Positions 5,817 through 29,268 of a stretch of 64,000 bases of DNA are shown in pieces; position 1 is the first letter of the stretch, and every line of letters starts with the position of its first letter. Under the pieces are notes generated by a model that saw only the letters and a list, made by a program, of their open reading frames with translations, was not told where the DNA came from and made no database searches. Source of the stretch: a virus; IMG/VR virus record IMGVR_UViG_3300009171_000001, positions 1 to 64,000 of that record; one strand, 5' to 3'. The position numbers were made by a program, and so were the translations under genes.

Positions 5817-7307
5817 TTATAATCTCATAACCACCGAATTTAATGAACCTGTATTCACCCCCACCAACCATCCAGGTTTTGGCCTCGCAAGCAATATCAA
5901 CGCACCATTTGTTTCTATTTCTATCATTATTGAACCATGTAAAACCTGATATACAACCATTCGTCCTATAACTGAGGTTAAAATATCTATCGAACCTGTC
6001 AACAGTCGTGTTGAATTCATTACACCAGAAACTATTATATCTACAGGAGAAGCCCCCGTCAAGCTCCTATCCCTGGAAATTTCTCCTAAAGTTTCTATTT
6101 GAATTTGAGTTATAGTTAATACACCCCGTTGACGAATTAAATCCCCAAGACAATCTATCCCAATAACCGACATTCCGACAAGGGGTTGAATTTGACCTGC
6201 TACCAAATCACCAACATTTGTAACGGATATATCTATTTGTCCTGTTAGTTTTCTTTCAATTTCAAGATTGCCAACGCTTTCCGTAGCAATACTAACCACA
6301 CCAACTATATTTTTAGCTACTAAAAGTGAACCGGAAATAACCAATCCAATAACCGACATTCCTACAAGTGGAACACTTGCTTTCATTGTTCCATTTGTTG
6401 AAATTGCTACAATTGATTCACCTATCAAATTTCGTTCAATGGACAAACTGGCATTAGCACCCAAATCTATATCTGCTTGTCCTTGTAATTTGGTGATGCG
6501 ATTCAACACACCCGTAGCAGATATTGCTACGTTGATTTGTCCATCAATTTCCCGTTCTATTGAAGATACAGCCGATGAAGAAATGGTAATAGGTGTAGAA
6601 CCAATTACTGTTTTTTGACAAGATAAATCGCCAGAACAACTCAACCCAATATCTATATCTGCAATTAAATCAATGGTGGGTAATAGGTCAAGGTTCTGGA
6701 CGTAGCCTGTCATCCAGTTGGTTACACCGTCGTCGTAACTATTTAGGCCATGAATATACCTAAAATCATTTTGTTGTGCGGAACTATCCGCTATCAATGT
6801 ATCGACTAAATCGCCGCCATCATCATCATAGTTGGTAGTGGCAATATAGGCGGTGTACCTGCCCTTATTAGTAGCTCCACCATCATCATCCCTTGTTATT
6901 CGTATAAAGTATTCTACATTCAGACTCCAACCATAATAAGGGTCTGAACCTACATTAACACCATCTTCCATAACTCTTAATAGAAAATAATCATCACCCC
7001 CACTGTTCCATCGAACGTAAAAATGCACAAAAGATTTACTTGTACTACCTAAATGGCAAGTATCATTTAAGTCATTAGAAAGCAGCCATACGGACGTTGT
7101 CGGAACAGCCGTCCCTGTATTTACTGCTGTTATTTTGAATGAAAACTTATGCTCGAAGTCACCGGAAAAGTAACCTGCTCCCTTATCTTTATAGACGTAG
7201 GAGGTTACGTTTCTTGGAAGTTCAGTATAGTTAATCTTCGCGGCAGCAACGGATATATCCGCCCCTTCATCAACTTCGGTATAAGTAGTAAAATCTTCAA
7301 TCGCCAT
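5817..7307 (-). CDS. Repeat-containing virion surface protein with lectin-like N-terminus
   Basis: Residues 1 to about 210 form a beta-rich region with acidic, glycine-rich loops (DDDGGATNKGRY, YDDDGGDLVD) that looks like a LamG/concanavalin-like jelly roll. From about 212 to the end there are roughly thirteen tandem units of about 20 residues with the pattern L-x-G-x-I-x-I-x(4)-G-x-L, for example LTGQIDISVTNVGDL and LTGSIDILTSVIGRM. Such repeats suggest a beta-solenoid or stacked-strand stalk. The context is the tail module, so a receptor-binding or decoration role is plausible. The fold and role are inferred; the repeats are directly visible. Confidence 0.5.
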   Translation of the reverse strand: MAIEDFTTYTEVDEGADISVAAAKINYTELPRNVTSYVYKDKGAGYFSGDFEHKFSFKITAVNTGTAVPTTSVWLLSNDLNDTCHLGSTSKSFVHFYVRWNSGGDDYFLLRVMEDGVNVGSDPYYGWSLNVEYFIRITRDDDGGATNKGRYTAYIATTNYDDDGGDLVDTLIADSSAQQNDFRYIHGLNSYDDGVTNWMTGYVQNLDLLPTIDLIADIDIGLSCSGDLSCQKTVIGSTPITISSSAVSSIEREIDGQINVAISATGVLNRITKLQGQADIDLGANASLSIERNLIGESIVAISTNGTMKASVPLVGMSVIGLVISGSLLVAKNIVGVVSIATESVGNLEIERKLTGQIDISVTNVGDLVAGQIQPLVGMSVIGIDCLGDLIRQRGVLTITQIQIETLGEISRDRSLTGASPVDIIVSGVMNSTRLLTGSIDILTSVIGRMVVYQVLHGSIMIEIETNGALILLARPKPGWLVGVNTGSLNSVVMRL

Positions 7308-22140: not shown

Positions 22141-22926
22141 CTATTCATTACCTGCACCCCCCTCATTATCTATTTTATCGGGTAATAGGGCCACGGGATT
22201 AGGGGATGGTATATTATCTATAACCGTACTATCGATGGCCCGCCGTCTAATAGTTTCTAATATCTTCTCGCGTACATCCATCGGTAACTCGTCTATAACT
22301 ATCCTTCCTTTTATAGTAGTATTTTTATCTATCTCTATTTTCTCCCCGTACCCTCTATCCTTACACTTTGTTTTTAGCCCGTATAGAATCGCCGTTGTAT
22401 CCATCGCTTTTACTAATTTATAAAATTGACTCTCTATAAAATCCTTCTTTATATCCTCTATTTCTTTTACTAACTTACCGAAATCGCCATCGTTATTTAA
22501 CCACTGGTAATACAACCCTCTACTTATCCCGACTTTCCGGCAAGCCTTCGCTATAGAGAAATTATTAGATATTAGGGCGTAGATAAAAAGATATTGATTA
22601 GCTGCTTTCCCCTTATTAGCCAAAAGGCTTTCTATTTTCCCCGTATCCGTCCCCTCTTTATCATACTGATTTATCTTTTCCCAAACGGATTTTAGGTTAT
22701 CGGGTAGCCGATTATAAACATAGTCTTTTATGCTTAGGTTGTTATTAGTTTTTTTCCGTATAGACTTAGCTGTCTTTATAGCCATTCTAATCTTTTTATA
22801 CTTTTTTCTCCATGTTATCAAGGTTGGCTTAGTCACGCCTATAGTTTTGGCTACGGTATTTAAGGTGGCACCATCCTTCACCAAATCGTATATCGTAAAA
22901 ACTAAACTATCGTTCCATTTTGTCAT
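22141..22926 (-). CDS. terS: Terminase small subunit-like protein
   Basis: The 261-residue protein has an N-terminal helix-turn-helix (TLNTVAKTIGVTKPTLITWRK, about residues 20-40) and a second one in the middle (NFSIAKACRKVGISRGLYYQWL, about 122-143), followed by a helical region and AILYGLKTKCKDRGYGEK, a common small-terminase motif. It would bind the packaging site and feed DNA to the large subunit. It is the first gene of the minus block. Its codon choice (many ATA and CGx codons in an AT-rich gene) differs somewhat from the structural genes downstream. Confidence 0.7.
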   Translation of the reverse strand: MTKWNDSLVFTIYDLVKDGATLNTVAKTIGVTKPTLITWRKKYKKIRMAIKTAKSIRKKTNNNLSIKDYVYNRLPDNLKSVWEKINQYDKEGTDTGKIESLLANKGKAANQYLFIYALISNNFSIAKACRKVGISRGLYYQWLNNDGDFGKLVKEIEDIKKDFIESQFYKLVKAMDTTAILYGLKTKCKDRGYGEKIEIDKNTTIKGRIVIDELPMDVREKILETIRRRAIDSTVIDNIPSPNPVALLPDKIDNEGGAGNE

Positions 22927-23219
22927 ATATCTAATTATATCCTATATATCCTATATATTTATACCCTGATTAGGGATTTTTAGAATATACCGTTGAAACC
23001 TGAAAAAGTCAATAGGCAGGTATAGATTTATAGACGGAAAAAAGTAAAATTTCTTAAGATTTTTTGGCCTTAAAATCTTGGTTTTTAGCGTAAAAACGGG
23101 GTTTTCCAAGATTTTTTCGATATACCCTAAAATTTTCTAAAGATTTCTCTCGCCTTAGCCGATAACGTATAGTATAGTATATATAGTATAGGCTATAAAG
23201 TATAGCCTAAGCATATTTG
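22927..23219. promoter_or_regulatory. Divergent intergenic region, AT-rich with hairpins
   Basis: The minus and plus gene blocks diverge here, so early and packaging promoters should lie inside. I see a hairpin AAGATTTT/AAAATCTT (about 23056-23080) followed by a T-run on the plus strand, resembling a terminator, and a perfect 8-bp hairpin TAGGCTAT/ATAGCCTA at about 23189-23209. Tandem TATAGTATA-like runs stand at 23168-23190. No reading frame is convincing and no promoter can be fixed with confidence. Confidence 0.4.
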
Positions 23220-23535
23220 ACAAGTTTATATCGGAGGCCGGGAAGGGCGGATTTTACTACGGGGTAAGATTACGCGGTCGGCCTAAAATACCGGAAGGAA
23301 TCTAAGTCGATACGCTACGGCTTACCTGGAAGTCCCGCTCCCGAAGAGGGCAGGCGGGTATCTAAGGAAACTACGGGTGGACGGCTTCCAGCTCTATTTC
23401 AACCACGCTTCGGCCTCAGGCCCGATAGGGGTTAAAATAGTATCAAGGCTGGCGGCGGGGCAGGGCGATATATCGTAAGGATTTACGGGCAAGCGGGCGA
23501 TACCAAGCAGATTTATCTGCCGGCAAAAGTCCACA
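23220..23535 (+). ncRNA. Candidate structured non-coding RNA (about 315 nt)
   Basis: This stretch is GC-rich inside very AT-rich flanks, has no open frame and folds by eye into many local helices: AGGCCG/CGGCCT (23236/23279), CTGGAAG/CTTCCAG enclosing CCCGC/GCGGG (about 23326-23391), CTATTTCAACC/GGTTAAAATAG (about 23394-23440, one mismatch), CGTAA/TTACG (about 23473-23487) and GCAGA/TCTGC (about 23507-23520). A GCCGG/CCGGC pair could close the whole. The plus strand is chosen because a tRNA-like element and plus genes follow. It is not RNase P RNA, tmRNA or SRP RNA as far as I can see; phage RNAs such as GOLLD or ROOL are possible comparators. Confidence 0.45.
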
Positions 23536-23609
23536 ATATAATATAAGATATATATACTTTATATATATACTTATATTACCAATTCTCCCTTAGAAAGAAA
23601 ATTAGATTA

Positions 23610-23672
23610 GGGCCTAATCGGATTACCCGACAAAATATATCGGGTATAGCGGTTCAACTCCGCTATAGGCTC
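23610..23672 (+). ncRNA. tRNA-like element 1 (no D arm)
   Basis: GGGCCTA at 23610-23616 pairs with TAGGCTC at 23666-23672 as a 7-bp acceptor-like helix. A T arm with AGCGG, loop TTCAACT and CCGCT lies at 23648-23664, and a central stem ACCCGA/TCGGGT at 23625-23645. There is no D arm and only 63 nt, so it is not a usual tRNA. The central stem resembles the hairpin of the pseudoknot elements nearby. It ends about 50 nt before the first early gene. Confidence 0.6.
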
Positions 23673-23725
23673 TTGTGTTTGTAAGTAAAATATCTAATAA
23701 TTATCTTATTTAAGGAGAACAAAAA

Positions 23726-23992
23726 ATGAAAACCGAAACGAAAACCGAAACGAAAATTACGAACGCCGAAAAAAGGGTAATCTTATCCGCTATTCGGGAA
23801 AAGATAAAAATCGCCTCCGATATTCTTTCCGTCGCCACCGTCGAGGAAAATTACGAGGATGAGGTAGTTATCGATGCGATAACGGACGCGGCGTTAATCA
23901 TCGAAATCGCGTATCTTAATTCGCTCGATGACGGCGGAGCGAGGATTCTTTACCCGCCGAAAGACGGGGAGGCCTACCGGAACGGGGAATAA
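23726..23992 (+). CDS. Early hypothetical protein, 88 residues
   Basis: The start has an AAGGAGAACAAAAA leader shared with six other genes nearby. The product is acidic and helical (EKRVILSAIREKIKIASDIL, EENYEDEVVIDAITDAALII) with a KTETKTETK start. It is not recognised. It is the first gene of the plus block, behind tRNA-like element 1, and is followed by pseudoknot element 1. First position and small size suggest an early host-takeover protein, which is inference. Confidence 0.6.
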   Translation: MKTETKTETKITNAEKRVILSAIREKIKIASDILSVATVEENYEDEVVIDAITDAALIIEIAYLNSLDDGGARILYPPKDGEAYRNGE

Positions 23993-24000
23993 AAGTTGAA

Positions 24001-24069
24001 ATACCCGATAATCTATATCGGGTATATATAGGTGAAAAGCGATAACCTATACTGATGAGACTAATCGCT
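24001..24069 (+). ncRNA. Hairpin plus H-type pseudoknot, copy 1
   Basis: Hairpin ATACCCGATA/TATCGGGTAT (24001-24025, 5-nt loop) is followed by stem 1 TATAGGT (24027-24033)/ACCTATA (24045-24051) and stem 2 AGCGAT (24038-24043)/ATCGCT (24064-24069). The stems interleave with loops of 4, 1 and 12 nt, ideal for an H-type pseudoknot. It lies just after the 23726 gene and about 37 nt before the next start codon. Confidence 0.65.
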
Positions 24070-24106
24070 AAAATATCTATTTAATATCTATTTAAGGAGA
24101 ACAAAA

Positions 24107-24382
24107 ATGAGAACGTCGAGAAAAGCTCCGATTATTCAAGTCCGAACTTTGGCCGAAAGGATAATCGAAATTAGCGAAAATCCACTAAGTGAAGCAGATT
24201 TTGAAGGGAAGACGGGACGCTCTCGGAGCGAGGTATTACTATTTTTAGCGAAGACTATCCTAATGGAATTAGAATCCACCGCTAAGTCTCGCCTCTTATA
24301 TATACCCGCTAAGTCAAGCATTGCCGCTAAGTCAAGCATTGCCGCTAAGTCAAGCATTGCCGCTAAGTCAAGCATCCGCTAA
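24107..24382 (+). CDS. Early hypothetical protein with repeat-made C-terminus
   Basis: The 91-residue product has a helical body (TLAERIIEISENPLSEADF, RSEVLLFLAKTILMELEST) and a tail of AAKSSI units encoded by a direct DNA repeat. The tail length therefore depends on repeat number and is likely unimportant for the fold. It begins after the shared leader and its stop overlaps the first bases of tRNA-like element 2. No family is recognised. Confidence 0.5.
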   Translation: MRTSRKAPIIQVRTLAERIIEISENPLSEADFEGKTGRSRSEVLLFLAKTILMELESTAKSRLLYIPAKSSIAAKSSIAAKSSIAAKSSIR

Positions 24383-24384
24383 GT
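24307..24384 (+). repeat. Tandem 18-bp repeat GCTAAGTCAAGCATTGCC
   Basis: Four near-perfect tandem units, the last shortened to GCTAAGTCAAGCATCC, run up to the stop codon of the host gene; each starts with GCTAAGT, a word that is unusually frequent on this strand. The number is expected to vary between relatives through slippage. Confidence 0.85.
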
Positions 24385-24434
24385 CTCCATCTGAAATAGA
24401 GGTCAGATTTATAGGTTCGACTCCTATGGAGACT
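24382..24434 (+). ncRNA. tRNA-like element 2 (no D arm)
   Basis: AGTCTCC at 24382-24388 pairs with GGAGACT at 24428-24434 (extendable to 8 bp), the T arm is ATAGG-TTCGACT-CCTAT, and the central stem is ATCTGA/TCAGAT (24389-24394/24403-24408). Only 53 nt separate the acceptor ends. The 3' flank TTTTGTAAGTAAAATATC is nearly that of element 1. Confidence 0.65.
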
Positions 24435-24481
24435 TTTGTAAGTAAAATATCTAATAATTATCTTATTTAAGGAGAACAAAA

Positions 24482-24817
24482 ATGAAGACCAAAATAAAAG
24501 ACACATTAAGACCATTCACTAAACAGGATGATCGCGTTTTTTGCAGCACTAAAAAACCTTCGGATGGCTCAACACCACTTATCGGCAGGGTCAAGATAAC
24601 AAATTGGCCTGATTCCGATAAAACTGATGGGTGGGATGACTTTGTGACTGTAATAGTGGATGGCCTCGGAGTATGTTTGTGTGGGACAGATGGTGTATTA
24701 ACAAGAGCCATCCCAGATTTTGAAGATGCTAAGGCCATTGCATATTACATTCTCTCCACTCCCACAGATTACATCCAACTGGTAAATAGCGGCAAGTGGG
24801 AATCCATCAATCTGTAG
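24482..24817 (+). CDS. Early hypothetical protein, 111 residues
   Basis: It follows tRNA-like element 2 and the shared leader. The chain begins MKTKIKDTLRPFTKQDDRVF and has a beta-rich middle (DDFVTVIVDGLGVCLCGTDG) and a helical DFEDAKAIAYYILS segment near the end. No family is recognised. Pseudoknot element 2 follows its stop codon by about 24 nt. Confidence 0.6.
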   Translation: MKTKIKDTLRPFTKQDDRVFCSTKKPSDGSTPLIGRVKITNWPDSDKTDGWDDFVTVIVDGLGVCLCGTDGVLTRAIPDFEDAKAIAYYILSTPTDYIQLVNSGKWESINL

Positions 24818-24840
24818 TAAAAACCGCCCGCTAAGTCGAA

Positions 24841-24909
24841 ATACCCGATATAGATTATCGGGTATATATAGGTCAAAGCGATGAACCTATACTGATGAGA
24901 CTAATCGCT
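24841..24909 (+). ncRNA. Hairpin plus H-type pseudoknot, copy 2
   Basis: Hairpin 24841-24865; stem 1 TATAGGT (24867-24873)/ACCTATA (24885-24891); stem 2 AGCGAT (24877-24882)/ATCGCT (24904-24909). Loop 3 is again 12 nt (CTGATGAGACTA). The hairpin loop differs from copy 1 (TAGAT in place of ATCTA) while the stem is kept. Confidence 0.65.
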
Positions 24910-24946
24910 AAAATATCTAATAATTATCTTATTAAGGAGAACAAAA

Positions 24947-25807
24947 ATGAAGACAGTAAAAACAAACCGATTAAGTGAACGTGCTATGCTGGTACACCTG
25001 CGCATTTTGAGATATGCCGGTCATACCAAAGACAATGAAGTAGTTTTGGACGTTTGTTCGCAAAAACAAGCCACTCAGGACAGCGGTGGATGGTACACCT
25101 ATTTGATTCCAAAAAAGGAATTGAGTGGTGTTAATCACGCTGCTTCCCGATGTCGCGAAATCCACAATCACTATACTTTTCCATGGCTGGATGGTGGGAT
25201 GCGGATATTACCATCTTTGTATTTCTTCAAATACCGCGAAGCCATCGCTACGGCCATCGCTGAGTATGATGAGGCAGTTGAGATATTTCTAACCAGATAC
25301 CCAGACATTGTAACTAAGTCCAAGGAACGTCTGGGTCAACTGAACAGAATAATGCCATCGGTGAAGGAGATTCAAAGCAAGTTTGCAGTTTCACACAGCA
25401 TATTTCCACTGCCTGAGACGGAGGACTTCCGTGTCAAATTGGCGGATGAGGAAAAGGAGTCTGTGAAAGCAACAATCACAGACAGTCTCAATGCCACAAT
25501 GACGGCTGCGGTCAGTGCCGTTTGGGGCAAATTAGCCAAGTCTGTGGAAAAGATTGCTGCAGCCACAAAGGACAAAGACAAACAATTTCGCAATGTCCTT
25601 TTCACAAACTTGGTTCAACTGTGTGAGGATTTGCCTCAACTGAATTTTACTAATGACGTCAAATTAGAAGAGGTGAGACAGCACATCTTAACTACGCTGG
25701 CTAAATTCAATCCAGATGATGTTCGTGAAGACAGTCAAAAACGCAAGGCAGCTGCCAAAGCAGCCAAAGACGTTTTGAACAAGATGAAAGATTATGCAAC
25801 TACATAG
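24947..25807 (+). CDS. DUF3150-like protein
   Basis: The 286-residue protein has a GGWYTYLIPKKELSGVNHAASRCREIHNHYTFPWLDGGMRILP region (residues about 45-90) and a long helical C-terminal half (about 160-286, with EEKESVKATITDSLNATM and a final KAAAKAAKDVLNKM). This plan, and the MoxR ATPase plus VWA genes following, match DUF3150 proteins that accompany MoxR-VWA pairs in phages. It may be the substrate or partner of that pair. The family call is by recalled pattern and neighbourhood. Confidence 0.55.
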   Translation: MKTVKTNRLSERAMLVHLRILRYAGHTKDNEVVLDVCSQKQATQDSGGWYTYLIPKKELSGVNHAASRCREIHNHYTFPWLDGGMRILPSLYFFKYREAIATAIAEYDEAVEIFLTRYPDIVTKSKERLGQLNRIMPSVKEIQSKFAVSHSIFPLPETEDFRVKLADEEKESVKATITDSLNATMTAAVSAVWGKLAKSVEKIAAATKDKDKQFRNVLFTNLVQLCEDLPQLNFTNDVKLEEVRQHILTTLAKFNPDDVREDSQKRKAAAKAAKDVLNKMKDYATT

Positions 25808-25817
25808 CGTGTTCTCC

Positions 25818-25867
25818 GACCACCGCAGGTTTCAGGCCGTTAATGGGTTCAAACCCCATCGGTGGTC
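25818..25867 (+). ncRNA. tRNA-like element 3 (no D arm)
   Basis: GACCACC at 25818-25824 pairs with GGTGGTC at 25861-25867 (8 bp counting G25825-C25860). The T arm is ATGGG-TTCAAAC-CCCAT at 25843-25859, with a textbook T loop. The central part (25826-25842) does not form as clear a stem as in elements 1 and 2. The 3' flank TTGTGTTTGTA is shared with element 1. Confidence 0.6.
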
Positions 25868-25919
25868 TTGTGTTTGTATGTAAAATATCTAATAATTATC
25901 TTATTTAAGGAGAACAAAA

Positions 25920-26159
25920 ATGAACCTGCAAGAAATTAAAAGCCGAGTTGAGGCACTAAAAGCCTCTCTGAAAATTGATGCTGTCGATGCCATTTATGAA
26001 GACAGCTTTGCGCTCGGCTATTTTGGCAATCAAATCCAGCATGAAATTGCCGGCCACGAAGGTTGCTTTGCCTATGCTCGTACATCGAGCAAAGCTCGCA
26101 TCGAGGCGATTGTAAACATGCTTGTGAATGAAGGAGAATGTTTGGCCAAAAAAGACTAA
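25920..26159 (+). CDS. Early hypothetical protein, 79 residues
   Basis: Begins MNLQEIKSRVEALKASLKID after the shared leader; the middle has YFGNQIQHEIAGHEGCFAYAR and the end is helical (SKARIEAIVNMLVNEGE). The H-E-x-x-G-H like segment is not a good zinc site. It lies between tRNA-like element 3 and pseudoknot copy 3, in front of the MoxR gene. No family is recognised. Confidence 0.55.
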   Translation: MNLQEIKSRVEALKASLKIDAVDAIYEDSFALGYFGNQIQHEIAGHEGCFAYARTSSKARIEAIVNMLVNEGECLAKKD

Positions 26160-26165
26160 GTCGAA

Positions 26166-26233
26166 ATACCCGATATAGAATATCGGGTATCTACGGATAA
26201 AAGCGATAATCCGTATCGAAAAGACTAATCGCT
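26166..26233 (+). ncRNA. Hairpin plus H-type pseudoknot, copy 3 (covarying stem)
   Basis: Hairpin 26166-26190 is unchanged in stem, but stem 1 is TACGGAT (26192-26198)/ATCCGTA (26209-26215): three base pairs differ from copy 1 and all three are compensated. Stem 2 AGCGAT/ATCGCT (26202-26207/26228-26233) is kept. Loop 3 is 12 nt with a different sequence (TCGAAAAGACTA). This copy is the best evidence that the pseudoknot is real. Confidence 0.7.
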
Positions 26234-26270
26234 AAAATATCTAATAAATATCTTAAAAAGGAGAACAAAA

Positions 26271-27257
26271 ATGAATGCTAAACAAATGAAAGTTGTACTG
26301 ACTAAGTGCATCAAAAACGGTTTGCCCGTGCTTATCAAAGGAGCGCCAGGTGTTGGCAAGTCTGATGTCGTGACGCAAGTAGCTGCTGAATTGAAGATGG
26401 ATTTAATCATCAGCCATCCAGTGGTAAGTGACCCGACAGACTTCAAAGGTCTGCCAGGGATTGTGGATGGCAAAGCTGAATTTTTGCCGTTTGGTGATTT
26501 GCGCTCGCTAATTCAAGCCAAAAAGCCAACAATTGCTTTCTTGGATGATTTGGGCCAAGCACCAGCCGCAGTACAAGCTGCAGCAATGCAACTAATCCTT
26601 GCTCGCCGAGTGAATGGACATAAAGTGAGTGACAAGGTGGTATTTATTGCCGCCACTAATCGACGGCAAGACAGGGCTGGTGTAACAGGCATCCTTGAAC
26701 CTGTTAAGTCCAGATTTGCCACCATCATTGAGTTGACACCAGATTTAGACAGCTGGTCTGAGTGGGCGTTGGCTAATGATGTTCCACCGCAGATTTTGGG
26801 CTTTTTGAATTTTCGCCCAAATTTGCTTTGCACCAATGAAGCAACAGCCGATATTGTGAACCATCCGTGCCCACGTACTTGGGCTTTTGCAAGCAAATTA
26901 ATCCAAATTGATTTGACGGATATACAAAGTCTGGCTGGAGCTTTGGGCGAAGGTTGTGCGGTTGAGTTTGTGGGATTTATGCGAGTGTTCGACAGTTTGC
27001 CGAACATTCAAACAATCCTATTAGACCCAGAAAATACCACCATCCCAAATGAACCTGCCGCTATGTATGCTGTGGTGTCCGCCTTGGTTAATCGAGTGTC
27101 CGACAAGACATTCAAAGCCATAGTTACATATGCTGACCGTTTGCCAGCTGATTTTGGCACGCTGCTAATCCGTGATTGTGTTAAGTCCAATCCAAACATT
27201 CAAAACACTGCTGCTTTTGGTCAATGGGCCATCAAGCACGCTAATTTGCTAATATGA
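26271..27257 (+). CDS. MoxR-type AAA+ ATPase
   Basis: The 328-residue ATPase shows Walker A GAPGVGKSD near residue 24, Walker B TIAFLDDLGQAP near 85, sensor 1 VFIAATNRRQDRAGV near 125 and an arginine-bearing EPVKSRFATIIEL segment near 145. MoxR ATPases work as chaperones with VWA-domain partners, and such a partner is encoded next. The stop overlaps or abuts the next gene start. Function in the phage is unknown; remodelling of a host or phage complex with the VWA protein is inferred. Preceded by pseudoknot copy 3 and the shared leader. Confidence 0.85.
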   Translation: MNAKQMKVVLTKCIKNGLPVLIKGAPGVGKSDVVTQVAAELKMDLIISHPVVSDPTDFKGLPGIVDGKAEFLPFGDLRSLIQAKKPTIAFLDDLGQAPAAVQAAAMQLILARRVNGHKVSDKVVFIAATNRRQDRAGVTGILEPVKSRFATIIELTPDLDSWSEWALANDVPPQILGFLNFRPNLLCTNEATADIVNHPCPRTWAFASKLIQIDLTDIQSLAGALGEGCAVEFVGFMRVFDSLPNIQTILLDPENTTIPNEPAAMYAVVSALVNRVSDKTFKAIVTYADRLPADFGTLLIRDCVKSNPNIQNTAAFGQWAIKHANLLI

Positions 27258-27265
27258 GGTGTACA

Positions 27266-28372
27266 ATGAATGCTATGGAAATTATGACTAAGGCCAGAAC
27301 TCACTTGTTGCTTGACCATCCATTTTTTGGATGCTTGGCCATGCGATTAAGTCTGGTTGAGGACAATCAGTTTGAAACAGCGGGGACAGATGGCAAGGAA
27401 TTGAGATTCAATTCACAATTCATTCAATCATTACGATTGAATCAAGTGGTTGGATTGTTTGCTCACGAGGTTATGCACTTGGCTTTGGGGCACAACTGGC
27501 GGCAAGGCACACGTGAACATGAACGGTGGAACAACGCTGGCGATTACGCCATCAATTCCAATCTTGTCCGCACTGGGATTCACCTGCCGGATGGTGCTTT
27601 GATTGCTTATCAGTTTGACAAAATGAGTGCAGAAGAAATTTACACTTATCTTCCGTCCAATCCAAACCAAAATCAAAGCTCCGGCTCAAGCCAAACGTCT
27701 GATCCAGGTGGTTGCGGGGCAGTATTACCCACACCCAATGATTCTCAACTGGATGAGACTAAGGCAGAGTGGAAGACAGCAGTGGCTCAAGCCATACAAT
27801 TTGCTGGCATCGGTAATTTGCCTGCGGATTTGGCTCGCCAATTACAATCGGTGATTGACCCATCGTTGCCATGGTATGTATTGCTGCGTGATTTTGTAGA
27901 ACGCTCAGCGCGCAACGATTTCACTTGGCAAAGGCCAAATGCTCGCTACATCAATCAAGGCATTGTTCTGCCAGGATTGATTAGTGAAGAGTTGCCTGAA
28001 GTGATTGTGGCTGTTGATACCAGTGGCTCAATTAGTCAAGCCCAATTGGATTCTTTTGCGGCTGAGGCCAGTGCGGTGCTTAGTGCTTACAAAACAACAA
28101 TCCGTGTGATATATTGCGACAACGAAGTACAAGGCGAGCAAATCTATCAAACAGATGATTTGCCCATCCACTTATCACCGAAAGGTGGTGGCGGGACAAA
28201 GTTTGACCCTGTGTTCCGCTATGTAAACGAGAATGGATATACACCATCCTGCGTGATATATCTGACGGATTTGTTGGGGCCCACACCCCAATGTGAGCCA
28301 GAATGCCCTGTACTTTGGGTAAGTACAAAGCCAGGCAAAATGCCCTTTGGTACAGTGATTCAACTGAATTGA
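27266..28372 (+). CDS. VWA-like metallopeptidase-domain protein (DUF2201-like)
   Basis: The chosen ATG at 27266 has GAGGT 6 nt upstream; an ATG at 27254 overlapping the previous stop is possible. Residues about 40-85 hold a zincin-like motif HEVMHLALGH followed by HERWNNAGDYAIN, as in DUF2201 N-terminal domains. Residues about 240-365 form a VWA-like domain with a metal-ion site (VAVDTSGSIS) and YLTDLLG. A linker rich in S, Q and P separates them. It should pair with the upstream MoxR ATPase. The joint role in infection is not known. Confidence 0.8.
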   Translation: MNAMEIMTKARTHLLLDHPFFGCLAMRLSLVEDNQFETAGTDGKELRFNSQFIQSLRLNQVVGLFAHEVMHLALGHNWRQGTREHERWNNAGDYAINSNLVRTGIHLPDGALIAYQFDKMSAEEIYTYLPSNPNQNQSSGSSQTSDPGGCGAVLPTPNDSQLDETKAEWKTAVAQAIQFAGIGNLPADLARQLQSVIDPSLPWYVLLRDFVERSARNDFTWQRPNARYINQGIVLPGLISEELPEVIVAVDTSGSISQAQLDSFAAEASAVLSAYKTTIRVIYCDNEVQGEQIYQTDDLPIHLSPKGGGGTKFDPVFRYVNENGYTPSCVIYLTDLLGPTPQCEPECPVLWVSTKPGKMPFGTVIQLN

Positions 28373-28380
28373 ATGTCGAA

Positions 28381-28447
28381 ATACCCGATAATCTATATCG
28401 GGTATATATAGGCTAAGGCGATAACCTATACTGATGAGACAATCGCT
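28381..28447 (+). ncRNA. Hairpin plus H-type pseudoknot, copy 4
   Basis: Hairpin 28381-28405; stem 1 TATAGG (28407-28412)/CCTATA (28425-28430); stem 2 GGCGAT (28417-28422)/ATCGCT (28442-28447), where the A-U pair of other copies is a G-U. Loop 3 is 11 nt. It precedes the 28484 gene and follows directly on the VWA gene. Confidence 0.65.
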
Positions 28448-28483
28448 AAAATATCTAATAAATATCTTAAAAGGAGAACAAAA

Positions 28484-28690
28484 ATGGAACTATGGACTAA
28501 AACACGATGGACTCGCTTGCGAAAGAAATCGAAAATAATTCAAACGGGTGGGATTGAAGGTTCACAAATTTACAATCTCATAATCGAAACACCCGAAGGC
28601 AAACACCTGGCTGGAGACTTGATATGGGATGGGTGGGCAGAGCTTGTGCAAGTCTGGACGCCAACACCACAAGAATACAAGCAAACGTAA
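28484..28690 (+). CDS. Small hypothetical protein, 68 residues
   Basis: Starts MELWTKTRWTRLRKKSKIIQ behind pseudoknot copy 4 and the shared leader; a basic N-terminus is followed by a beta-rich segment (IYNLIIETPEGKHLAGDLIW) and a tryptophan-rich end. The segment resembles small phage proteins that bind nucleic acid, but no family is recognised. Confidence 0.55.
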   Translation: MELWTKTRWTRLRKKSKIIQTGGIEGSQIYNLIIETPEGKHLAGDLIWDGWAELVQVWTPTPQEYKQT

Positions 28691-28708
28691 GGAGAACCAA
28701 AATACATC

Positions 28709-28738
28709 CGCTAAGGCTCGCTAAGGCTCGCTAAGGCT
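28709..28738 (+). repeat. Tandem 10-bp repeat CGCTAAGGCT (three copies)
   Basis: Three exact tandem units lie between the 28484 gene and the ribosome binding site of the sigma-like gene. Each contains GCTAAG, the same word that heads the 18-bp repeat at 24307 and is over-represented on this strand. Confidence 0.85.
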
Positions 28739-28761
28739 AACATTTTTTAAGGAGAACAAAA

Positions 28762-29268
28762 ATGAACAACAATAATATAGAAATGACGTATTGTGATTGT
28801 GTTGATTTGATACGCAAAACAGTTTGGGATTTCATCGCTAAGTACAACAAACATCCCGATGAGTTTGATGAACTGATGAGTCAGGCTAATGAATACTTTA
28901 TGACCGCATACAACACGCATGATAAAACGCGAAGCTCATTTACCACGTGGTTGAGGGTAAGGGTATGGTACGGATTAGTGATGGCTAATGGCAAAGAAAT
29001 GAAACACACTCGCAATCAATCCCGTCCACCACGCCCAACAAATCATCAAGACAACATAGGATTATTGGATTTGATAGACAGTTTGAATGAGGATGCCAAA
29101 AATCTAATCTTGCTGGTACGAAGTGTGCCAGCAGATTTGGACCAGCTGTTTCATCGTGCACACCGCAAACCCGCACGCAAGTATGTCTTTCAATACTTGA
29201 AAGATTGTGGATGGACGCGGAGTGAGATATTGAATGCTTTTTCAAGTTTGAAATGCCTATTACAATAA
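28762..29268 (+). CDS. Sigma-factor-like protein, early region (tentative)
   Basis: In this 168-residue protein residues about 32-75 (DEFDELMSQANEYFMTAY, then FTTWLRVRVWYGLV) read like sigma region 2, with the typical F-x-T-W-L helix. The C-terminal 60 residues (LLDLIDSLNEDAKNLILLVR and KDCGWTRSEILNAFSSLK) could be a diverged region 4 helix-turn-helix. The link is a basic, proline-rich segment. It follows an AAGGAGAACAAAAATG start. If active, it could act at middle or late promoters. Identification is by pattern only. Confidence 0.5.
   Translation: MNNNNIEMTYCDCVDLIRKTVWDFIAKYNKHPDEFDELMSQANEYFMTAYNTHDKTRSSFTTWLRVRVWYGLVMANGKEMKHTRNQSRPPRPTNHQDNIGLLDLIDSLNEDAKNLILLVRSVPADLDQLFHRAHRKPARKYVFQYLKDCGWTRSEILNAFSSLKCLLQ

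What the first reader, a model, noticed from the sequence alone, without database searches (positions are those of the whole stretch)
23610..28483. Alternating RNA modules in front of successive early genes with one shared leader
The order is tRNA-like, gene, pseudoknot, gene, tRNA-like, gene, pseudoknot, gene, tRNA-like, gene, pseudoknot, two coupled genes, pseudoknot, gene. All seven run into the same leader (AAAATATCTAATAATTATCT, then AAGGAGAACAAAAATG). tRNA-like element 1 also carries the ACCCGA/TCGGGT arm of the pseudoknot hairpin, so the two families share parts. The regular alternation suggests a system that cuts a long transcript into gene-size units with defined, structured 5' ends.
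Basis: inference. Interest (0 to 1): 0.85.

Follow-up and report, generated by a model that had tools for sequence, protein, structure and literature searches.

The report
Ribozymes and mini-tRNAs punctuate phage operon
In this phage almost every early gene is preceded by either a self-cutting hammerhead ribozyme or a stripped-down tRNA shape, and relatives carry the same or other cut-like signals at the same gene borders, so the phage most likely cuts one long RNA into separate messages with a standard start.

Summary
Seven RNA modules (T-H-T-H-T-H-H) stand 42-54 nt before seven early genes, and all run into one leader. The four "pseudoknots" (H1-H4) are type II hammerhead ribozymes with the known loop I/tail pseudoknot. 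A covariance model built only from other phages finds exactly these four in the window (E 1e-7 to 1.5e-4) and nothing else up to E=5. H3 has an altered core and may be weak or dead. The three tRNA-like elements (T1-T3) keep acceptor stem and T-arm but lack a D-arm; they are not tRNAs by ARAGORN or Rfam, and resemble the acceptor/T-arm model substrates of RNase P. In 0.97 Mb of relatives, 15 of 15 hammerheads and 8 of 8 minimal T elements are in sense and just upstream of a ribosome site plus start codon. Relatives L113 and L135 mix both classes; L073 has only hammerheads; L077 has RNase III-like hairpins; L075 repeats a promoter-like block; L074 has nothing. So "one cut signal per gene" recurs, strict alternation does not. 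Hammerhead arrays around phage genes were known; I found no report of their interchange with minimal tRNA-like elements. No cleavage was measured.

The parts
23610..23672 (+). T1, tRNA-like element: acceptor GGGCCTA/TAGGCTC, hairpin TACCCGA/TCGGGTA in place of the D/anticodon arms, T-arm TAGCGG-TTCAACT-CCGCTA
   Evidence: descriptor; MFE is exactly this three-way junction, z -4.3; no ARAGORN or Rfam tRNA call
23687..23725 (+). shared leader 1 (AAAATATCTAATAATTATCTTATTTAAGGAGAACAAAAA)
23726..23992 (+). gene, 88 aa, no Pfam match
23994..24062 (+). H1, type II hammerhead; predicted cut after 24026; loop I AGCGAT pairs with tail ATCGCT
   Evidence: E 2.8e-6
24070..24106 (+). shared leader 2
24107..24382 (+). 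gene, 91 aa, no Pfam match
24383..24433 (+). T2, tRNA-like element: GTCTCC/GGAGAC (extends to AAGTCTCC/GGAGACTT), middle hairpin ATCTGA/TCAGAT, T-arm ATAGG-TTCGACT-CCTAT
   Evidence: MFE as drawn, z -2.9
24444..24481 (+). shared leader 3
24482..24817 (+). gene, 111 aa, no Pfam match
24834..24902 (+). H2, type II hammerhead; predicted cut after 24866; loop I/tail pseudoknot
   Evidence: E 1.4e-7; MFE is the hammerhead fold
24910..24946 (+). shared leader 4
24947..25807 (+). gene, 286 aa; distant relatives in cultured cyanophages, one annotated DUF3150
25818..25867 (+). T3, tRNA-like element: acceptor GACCACCG/CGGTGGTC, T-arm ATGGG-TTCAAAC-CCCAT, 17-nt linker without a clear arm; GTTCTCC just 5' is complementary to the ribosome site
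   Evidence: note the MFE of T3 alone does not show the T-arm
25882..25919 (+). shared leader 5
25920..26159 (+). gene, 79 aa, no Pfam match
26159..26226 (+). H3, variant type II hammerhead; core TCGAAAA for CTGATGA (C3U with G8A, U4C, U7A); would cut after 26191; stems kept with compensatory changes; may be weak or inactive
   Evidence: (E 1.5e-4)
26234..26270 (+). shared leader 6
26271..27257 (+). gene, 328 aa, AAA ATPase
   Evidence: AAA_5, 7e-8
27254..28372 (+). gene, DUF2201 metallopeptidase-like/VWA protein overlapping the ATPase gene (better start probably 27266)
   Evidence: (1e-48, 9e-30)
28374..28441 (+). H4, type II hammerhead; predicted cut after 28406; stem II TGTC/GACA against AGTC/GACT in H2 (compensatory)
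   Evidence: E 1.9e-6
28448..28483 (+). shared leader 7
28484..28690 (+). gene, 68 aa, no Pfam match

Best explanation
The early transcript is punctuated by two interchangeable classes of intercistronic cleavage element. H1, H2 and H4 (and perhaps H3) are type II hammerhead ribozymes that cut themselves after U-A (24026, 24866, 28406) or U-C (26191). T1-T3 are minimal tRNA-like substrates that host RNase P most likely cuts at the 5' side of the acceptor stem; RNase Z may also cut on the 3' side. Each cut gives a single-gene mRNA (or the coupled ATPase/VWA pair) whose 5' end is a stable hairpin without a triphosphate, followed by the same AT-rich leader and strong ribosome site; after hammerhead cleavage the upstream mRNA ends in the stem III hairpin. 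Shown here: positions, hammerhead membership by core, topology and covariation, tRNA-like form, and recurrence in relatives. Inferred: that cleavage happens in infection, that RNase P (and Z) act on T, and that the benefit is standard, separately stable and translatable messages.
For: Type II order (stem II-GAAA-stem III-UH-stem I-CUGAUGA-stem II) with a 6-bp loop I/tail pseudoknot in H1, H2 and H4; 0 in 30 shuffles. A model from 16 hammerheads of other phages finds the four window elements and nothing else up to E=5; 99.5% of cells paired, covariation 0.76 against 0.23 shuffled. Perreault et al. 2011 (PMC3088659) describe this pseudoknotted type II form and hammerheads flanking prophage genes, with cleavage shown in vitro and, for one array, in E. 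coli. In 0.97 Mb of relatives 15/15 hammerheads and 8/8 minimal T elements lie in sense within 75 nt of a ribosome site plus start; shuffles give about 2 T hits per set, 1 of 18 so placed. Mixed arrays in L113 and L135. The border between the 286-aa-type gene and the ATPase gene carries H (L073), T (L113, L114, L115), T-gene-H (window), or a strong hairpin (L076, L077). Acceptor + T-arm hairpins are cleaved by E. coli RNase P RNA (PMC11143913). Seven of eight T elements have G1-C72 and none has CCA.
Against: No cleavage was measured. H3 departs from the hammerhead core. Rfam's own type II model does not score the window elements. The window's T elements fall below every tRNA model; T3's isolated MFE hides its T-arm. 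They lack 3' RCCA, which helps bacterial RNase P. L074 carries the same genes without elements. The host, and so its RNase P/Z, is unknown. The T descriptor was written after seeing T1-T3.
Confidence: 0.72

Rival explanations
1. The hammerheads cut, but the T elements are not RNase P/Z substrates: they are stable 5' structures (or tRNA mimics bound by some protein) that protect or regulate the message.
For: T elements lack CCA, D-arm and anticodon arm; T1-T3 fall below all tRNA models. Cleavage of such forms is known only from model substrates.
Against: The intact T-loop TTCRANY, acceptor + T-stem stack and G1-C72 are the features RNase P reads; T elements occupy the same borders as hammerheads and hairpins in relatives.
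Confidence: 0.3
2. The shared leader is a repeated phage promoter; the structures upstream are terminators or insulators of separate transcripts.
For: Relative L075 does have a repeated promoter-like block before its genes; the leader is AT-rich and near-identical before each gene.
Against: Promoter-like and terminator-like sites are at shuffle level across 22900-28800 (10 against 12.7; 6 against 5.0) and only one promoter-like match overlaps a leader. Hammerhead cores and T-loops are not needed in terminators; no terminator-type T-run follows the stems. Unknown phage promoters cannot be excluded.
Confidence: 0.1
3. The elements are selfish or neutral repeats: one ribozyme-leader module duplicated with small genes, plus decayed tRNA genes, without a role for cleavage.
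For: Within the window the H modules are near-copies; modules travel with small unknown genes; phages often gain tRNAs (general knowledge).
Against: Stems keep pairing through compensatory changes (stem I TATAGGT/ACCTATA against TACGGAT/ATCCGTA; stem II AGTC/GACT against TGTC/GACA). The 33-54-nt spacing in most relatives and sense-only placement, and unrelated element sequences at the same borders, argue for function.
Confidence: 0.12

Closest known systems
Type II hammerhead ribozymes in phage/prophage gene arrays (Perreault et al. 2011, PMC3088659)
   Same: Same fold, core and loop I/tail pseudoknot; multiple copies flank single genes or short gene blocks; the same processing role was proposed.
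   Different: Here every copy runs into one shared leader, they are interleaved with tRNA-like elements, and H3 is a core variant. AT-rich stems put the window's copies outside Rfam's Hammerhead_II model.
RNase P model substrates (acceptor stem + T-stem/loop; McClain, Guerrier-Takada and Altman, cited in PMC11143913)
   Same: Acceptor stem stacked on an intact T-arm, no D-arm; G1-C72 in seven of eight elements.
   Different: Those are synthetic and carry a 3' CCA; these are natural, embedded in mRNA, with a linker hairpin and no CCA. Cleavage untested.
tRNA punctuation of polycistronic RNA (mitochondria; general knowledge) and RNase P processing of a bacterial polycistronic mRNA (Alifano et al. 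1994, cited in PMC11143913)
   Same: tRNA-shaped signals between genes, or RNase P, define mRNA ends.
   Different: Not functional tRNAs; mixed with ribozymes; each followed by a standard ribosome-binding leader.
RNase III processing of phage T7 early mRNA (general knowledge)
   Same: An early polycistronic phage RNA is cut between genes at hairpins; relative L077 has hairpins of that kind at the same borders.
   Different: No such hairpins in the window; there the cut is self-catalysed or tRNA-like.
freshwater-2 RNA motif (Rfam RF02980)
   Same: Hairpins followed by an AAGGAGAA...AAATG ribosome site.
   Different: Window matches are 25-27 bits against a 49.9-bit cut-off; its consensus lacks the hammerhead core.

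Membership tests
Type II hammerhead ribozyme | Permuted order: open stem II, hairpins III and I | tested here: met
   H1, H2, H4 by strict descriptor; H3 by relaxed descriptor
Type II hammerhead ribozyme | Core CUGANGA and GAAA, A15.1-U16.1, H17 not G (H1, H2, H4) | tested here: met
   perfect in H1, H2 and H4
Type II hammerhead ribozyme | Core CUGANGA (H3) | tested here: not met
   H3 reads UCGAAAA. U3-A8 is reported in nature with in vitro activity (PMC3088659); C4 also occurs in both hammerheads of L135. H3 is therefore called a hammerhead variant, not a canonical member
Type II hammerhead ribozyme | Pseudoknot of loop I with tail 3' of stem II | tested here: met
   AGCGAT or GGCGAT with ATCGCT, 6 bp, in H1, H2 and H4; the same strings are present in H3
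Type II hammerhead ribozyme | Matched by a covariance model built from other members | tested here: met
   R1 (16 non-window members): E 1.4e-7, 1.9e-6, 2.8e-6, 1.5e-4
Type II hammerhead ribozyme | Rfam RF02276 score over cut-off | tested here: not met
   No match in the window record; relative L073 29-35 bits, cut-off 37; L046 and L065 pass. A limit of the library model's sensitivity, not a structural feature
Type II hammerhead ribozyme | Self-cleavage after H17 | not testable with these tools
   needs a transcription assay
tRNA | Acceptor stem and T-arm with TTCRANY loop | tested here: met
   T1-T3
tRNA | D-arm, anticodon arm, ARAGORN or Rfam cut-off | tested here: not met
   the T elements of L114 and L113 score sub-threshold (22 and 19 bits, cut-off 29)
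RNase P substrate of acceptor/T-arm type | About 12-bp acceptor/T stack, intact T-loop, G1-C72 | tested here: met
RNase P substrate of acceptor/T-arm type | 3' RCCA | tested here: not met
   U73-U74 in T1-T3; helpful rather than strictly required, and its absence suits RNase Z (general knowledge)
RNase P substrate of acceptor/T-arm type | Cleavage by the enzyme | not testable with these tools
   needs an enzyme assay
freshwater-2 RNA (RF02980) | Score over gathering cut-off | tested here: not met
   26.5 and 25.2 bits against 49.9

The most novel reading that the evidence does not exclude
A phage lineage keeps one cut signal per early gene while swapping the chemistry freely: self-cleaving ribozyme, minimal tRNA-like RNase P substrate, RNase III-type hairpin, or (without cutting) a promoter block per gene. 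Natural minimal RNase P substrates would then be a phage mRNA punctuation mark that tRNA finders miss, and for T1 and T3 the cut would also free a ribosome site that the uncut RNA hides.
Probability: 0.5. Interest if true: 0.85.

Novelty: new variant of a known kind. Interest (0 to 1): 0.72.

Why it matters
The function of bacterial and phage hammerheads has been a proposal since 2011. Finding them exchanged, at the same gene borders, with other likely cleavage signals is comparative evidence that cutting between genes is what is selected, and it gives short native fragments on which to test it. It would also add stripped-down tRNA shapes as a class of mRNA processing signal that standard tRNA and Rfam searches do not report.

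Tried and rejected
Genuine tRNA genes: rejected. Known Rfam cis-element: only sub-threshold freshwater-2. Strict alternation as the conserved unit: rejected by L073, L113, L135 and L074. Sigma-70-type promoters in the leaders: at shuffle level. Release of the ribosome site by cleavage as a general mechanism: in folding it holds only for T1 (opening cost 5.4 to 1.4 kcal/mol) and T3 (4.5 to 1.5), not for T2, L113 or most hammerheads (H2 changes modestly, 2.8 to 1.7); the script stopped with an error at later relatives, and its H3 cut was one base off. Strong structure in the 23215-23545 stretch: z only -1.0. DNA similarity in cultured phages: none. Cultured relative Planktothrix phage Pag-Yong1 has the related genes but neither element in the stretch read. 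Genome collection scan with the 286-aa alignment: no relative. Two protein alignment attempts failed on coordinates.
Full report
WHAT IS THERE. The window is part of a 73.8-kb virus record, a tailed phage with a terminase gene. Divergent from the small and large terminase genes runs an early operon. Its first seven module-bearing starts are each preceded by an RNA module and an AT-rich leader. The AT-rich leader is limited to these seven genes; the following genes have the ribosome site only.

THE 'PSEUDOKNOTS' ARE TYPE II HAMMERHEADS. H2 reads AGTC-GAAA-[stem III]-U-A-[stem I with a loop holding AGCGAU]-CUGAUGA-GACU-AAUCGCU. This is the permuted type II order: open stem II, hairpins III and I, and the loop I/tail pseudoknot (AGCGAU with AUCGCU) described for this class (PMC3088659). 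A strict descriptor finds H1, H2 and H4 and nothing in 30 shuffles. Rfam's Hammerhead_II model misses them, although it recognises the hammerheads of relative L073 at 29-35 bits and some of L046 and L065 above cut-off. I therefore built a model from 16 hammerheads of other phages only. It finds the four window elements with E 1.4e-7 to 1.5e-4 and nothing else up to E=5. Covariation in that set is strong and stays so in the alignment that includes the window's copies (that alignment is fitted to the model). Predicted cuts are after 24026, 24866 and 28406.

H3 (26159-26226) keeps all stems, with compensatory changes in stem I, but reads UCGAAAA for CUGAUGA. Three of its four changes are mild or attested: U3 with A8 replaces the C3-G8 pair, a natural variant whose activity was shown in vitro (PMC3088659), and position 7 is free. 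The fourth, C4, also occurs in both hammerheads of L135. Whether H3 cuts is open.

THE tRNA-LIKE ELEMENTS. T1-T3 have an acceptor stem, an intact T-arm with loop TTCRANY, and either a single hairpin (T1, T2) or a short linker (T3) in place of D- and anticodon arms. ARAGORN and the Rfam tRNA model do not report them. In relatives the same minimal form occurs in L113, L123, L129 and L135 (twice); L114 and L115 have longer forms. The tRNA model sees those of L114 and L113 below cut-off, which suggests descent from tRNA (inference). Seven of eight minimal forms begin with G1-C72, and none carries CCA. E. coli RNase P RNA cleaves hairpins made of just acceptor stem, T-stem and T-loop (PMC11143913), so RNase P cleavage is the most economical reading. 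It was not tested.

POSITION IS THE STRONGEST STATISTIC. In 968 kb of window and relatives, known duplicate contigs removed, 15 of 15 hammerheads and 8 of 8 minimal T elements lie in sense within 75 nt upstream of a ribosome site plus start codon. Eight shuffled sets gave 18 T hits in all, one so placed, and one hammerhead hit, not so placed. The T descriptor was drawn up on T1-T3, so the five T elements of relatives are the independent part. With gene calls, most elements end 33-54 nt before the start.

COMPARISON OF RELATIVES. The triad 286-aa gene, AAA ATPase and DUF2201/VWA gene, in the closest relatives next to divergent terminase genes, defines the group. The border between the 286-aa gene and the ATPase gene holds: T3-gene-H3 (window); H (L073); T-gene-leader (L113); T directly (L114, L115); a long hairpin with an internal loop (L076, L077; z about -5 to -6); a repeated promoter-like block (L075); or nothing (L074). 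L073 has hammerheads before three successive genes and after the VWA gene, each running into that phage's own shared leader. L113 mixes H, H and T; L135 mixes T, T, H and H. So each of these phages has its own standard leader and usually one cut-like signal per gene, while the class and order of signals change.

MECHANISM. Most likely the early RNA is cut once before each gene. Hammerhead cleavage leaves a 5'-OH message starting with the stem I hairpin and an upstream message ending in the stem III hairpin; RNase P cleavage leaves a 5'-monophosphate message starting with the closed acceptor/T stack. All then share the same leader. Shown: elements, positions, conservation. Inferred: cleavage in infection, RNase P/Z action, and benefit. 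A secondary effect may hold for T1 and T3: sequences just 5' of them (UUCUCC at 23583 and 25812) pair with the ribosome site in the uncut RNA, and cutting lowers the opening cost from 5.4 to 1.4 and from 4.5 to 1.5 kcal/mol; the other modules show little or no such effect.

NOVELTY. Hammerhead arrays around prophage genes and the idea of mRNA processing are known (PMC3088659). In the open-access library I found no account of natural minimal tRNA-like elements used interchangeably with hammerheads; absence there is not proof, since most subscription papers are not held. I rate it a new variant of a known kind.

Noticed in passing
window 23215-23545: GC-rich noncoding stretch at the head of the operon between a promoter-like AT region and T1; folding is only slightly better than shuffled (z -1.0) and Rfam has no match. 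L073 (about 5940-6000) and L074 (about 6640-6710) share a conserved noncoding motif GTCCAGGTGYCGGTAGGGCTAATGGAGAAGC at the same place.
   Followed up: partly
L077 4240-8000; L076 7918-7960: Long hairpins with a small internal loop before successive early genes (z -5 to -7), like RNase III processing sites, followed by that phage's shared leader and, in L077, tandem 15-nt repeats AAAGACGAATCGATT.
   Followed up: partly
L075 4200-4390, 5300-5470, 6460-6630: A promoter-like block (CTAGTATATACCGATATACTAATATA...) repeated before the 286-aa, ATPase and VWA genes instead of any cleavage element.
   Followed up: no
L135 3559-3612 and 3858-3916: Two hammerheads with core CCGATGA (U4C), a natural core variant present twice in one phage.
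   Followed up: partly
window 24304-24375 and 28707-28737: Short tandem repeats CCGCTAAGTCAAGCATTG (inside the 3' end of the 91-aa gene) and GCTAAGGCTC; a related string CGCTAAGTC abuts T2 and H2.
   Followed up: no
window 28762-29268: Gene with a weak sigma-70 region 2 match (below Pfam cut-off), a possible phage sigma factor right after the punctuated genes.
   Followed up: no
L203, L208, L215, L046, L065: Further viral contigs with two to five type II hammerheads in a row; the minimal T descriptor found nothing in them.
   Followed up: partly
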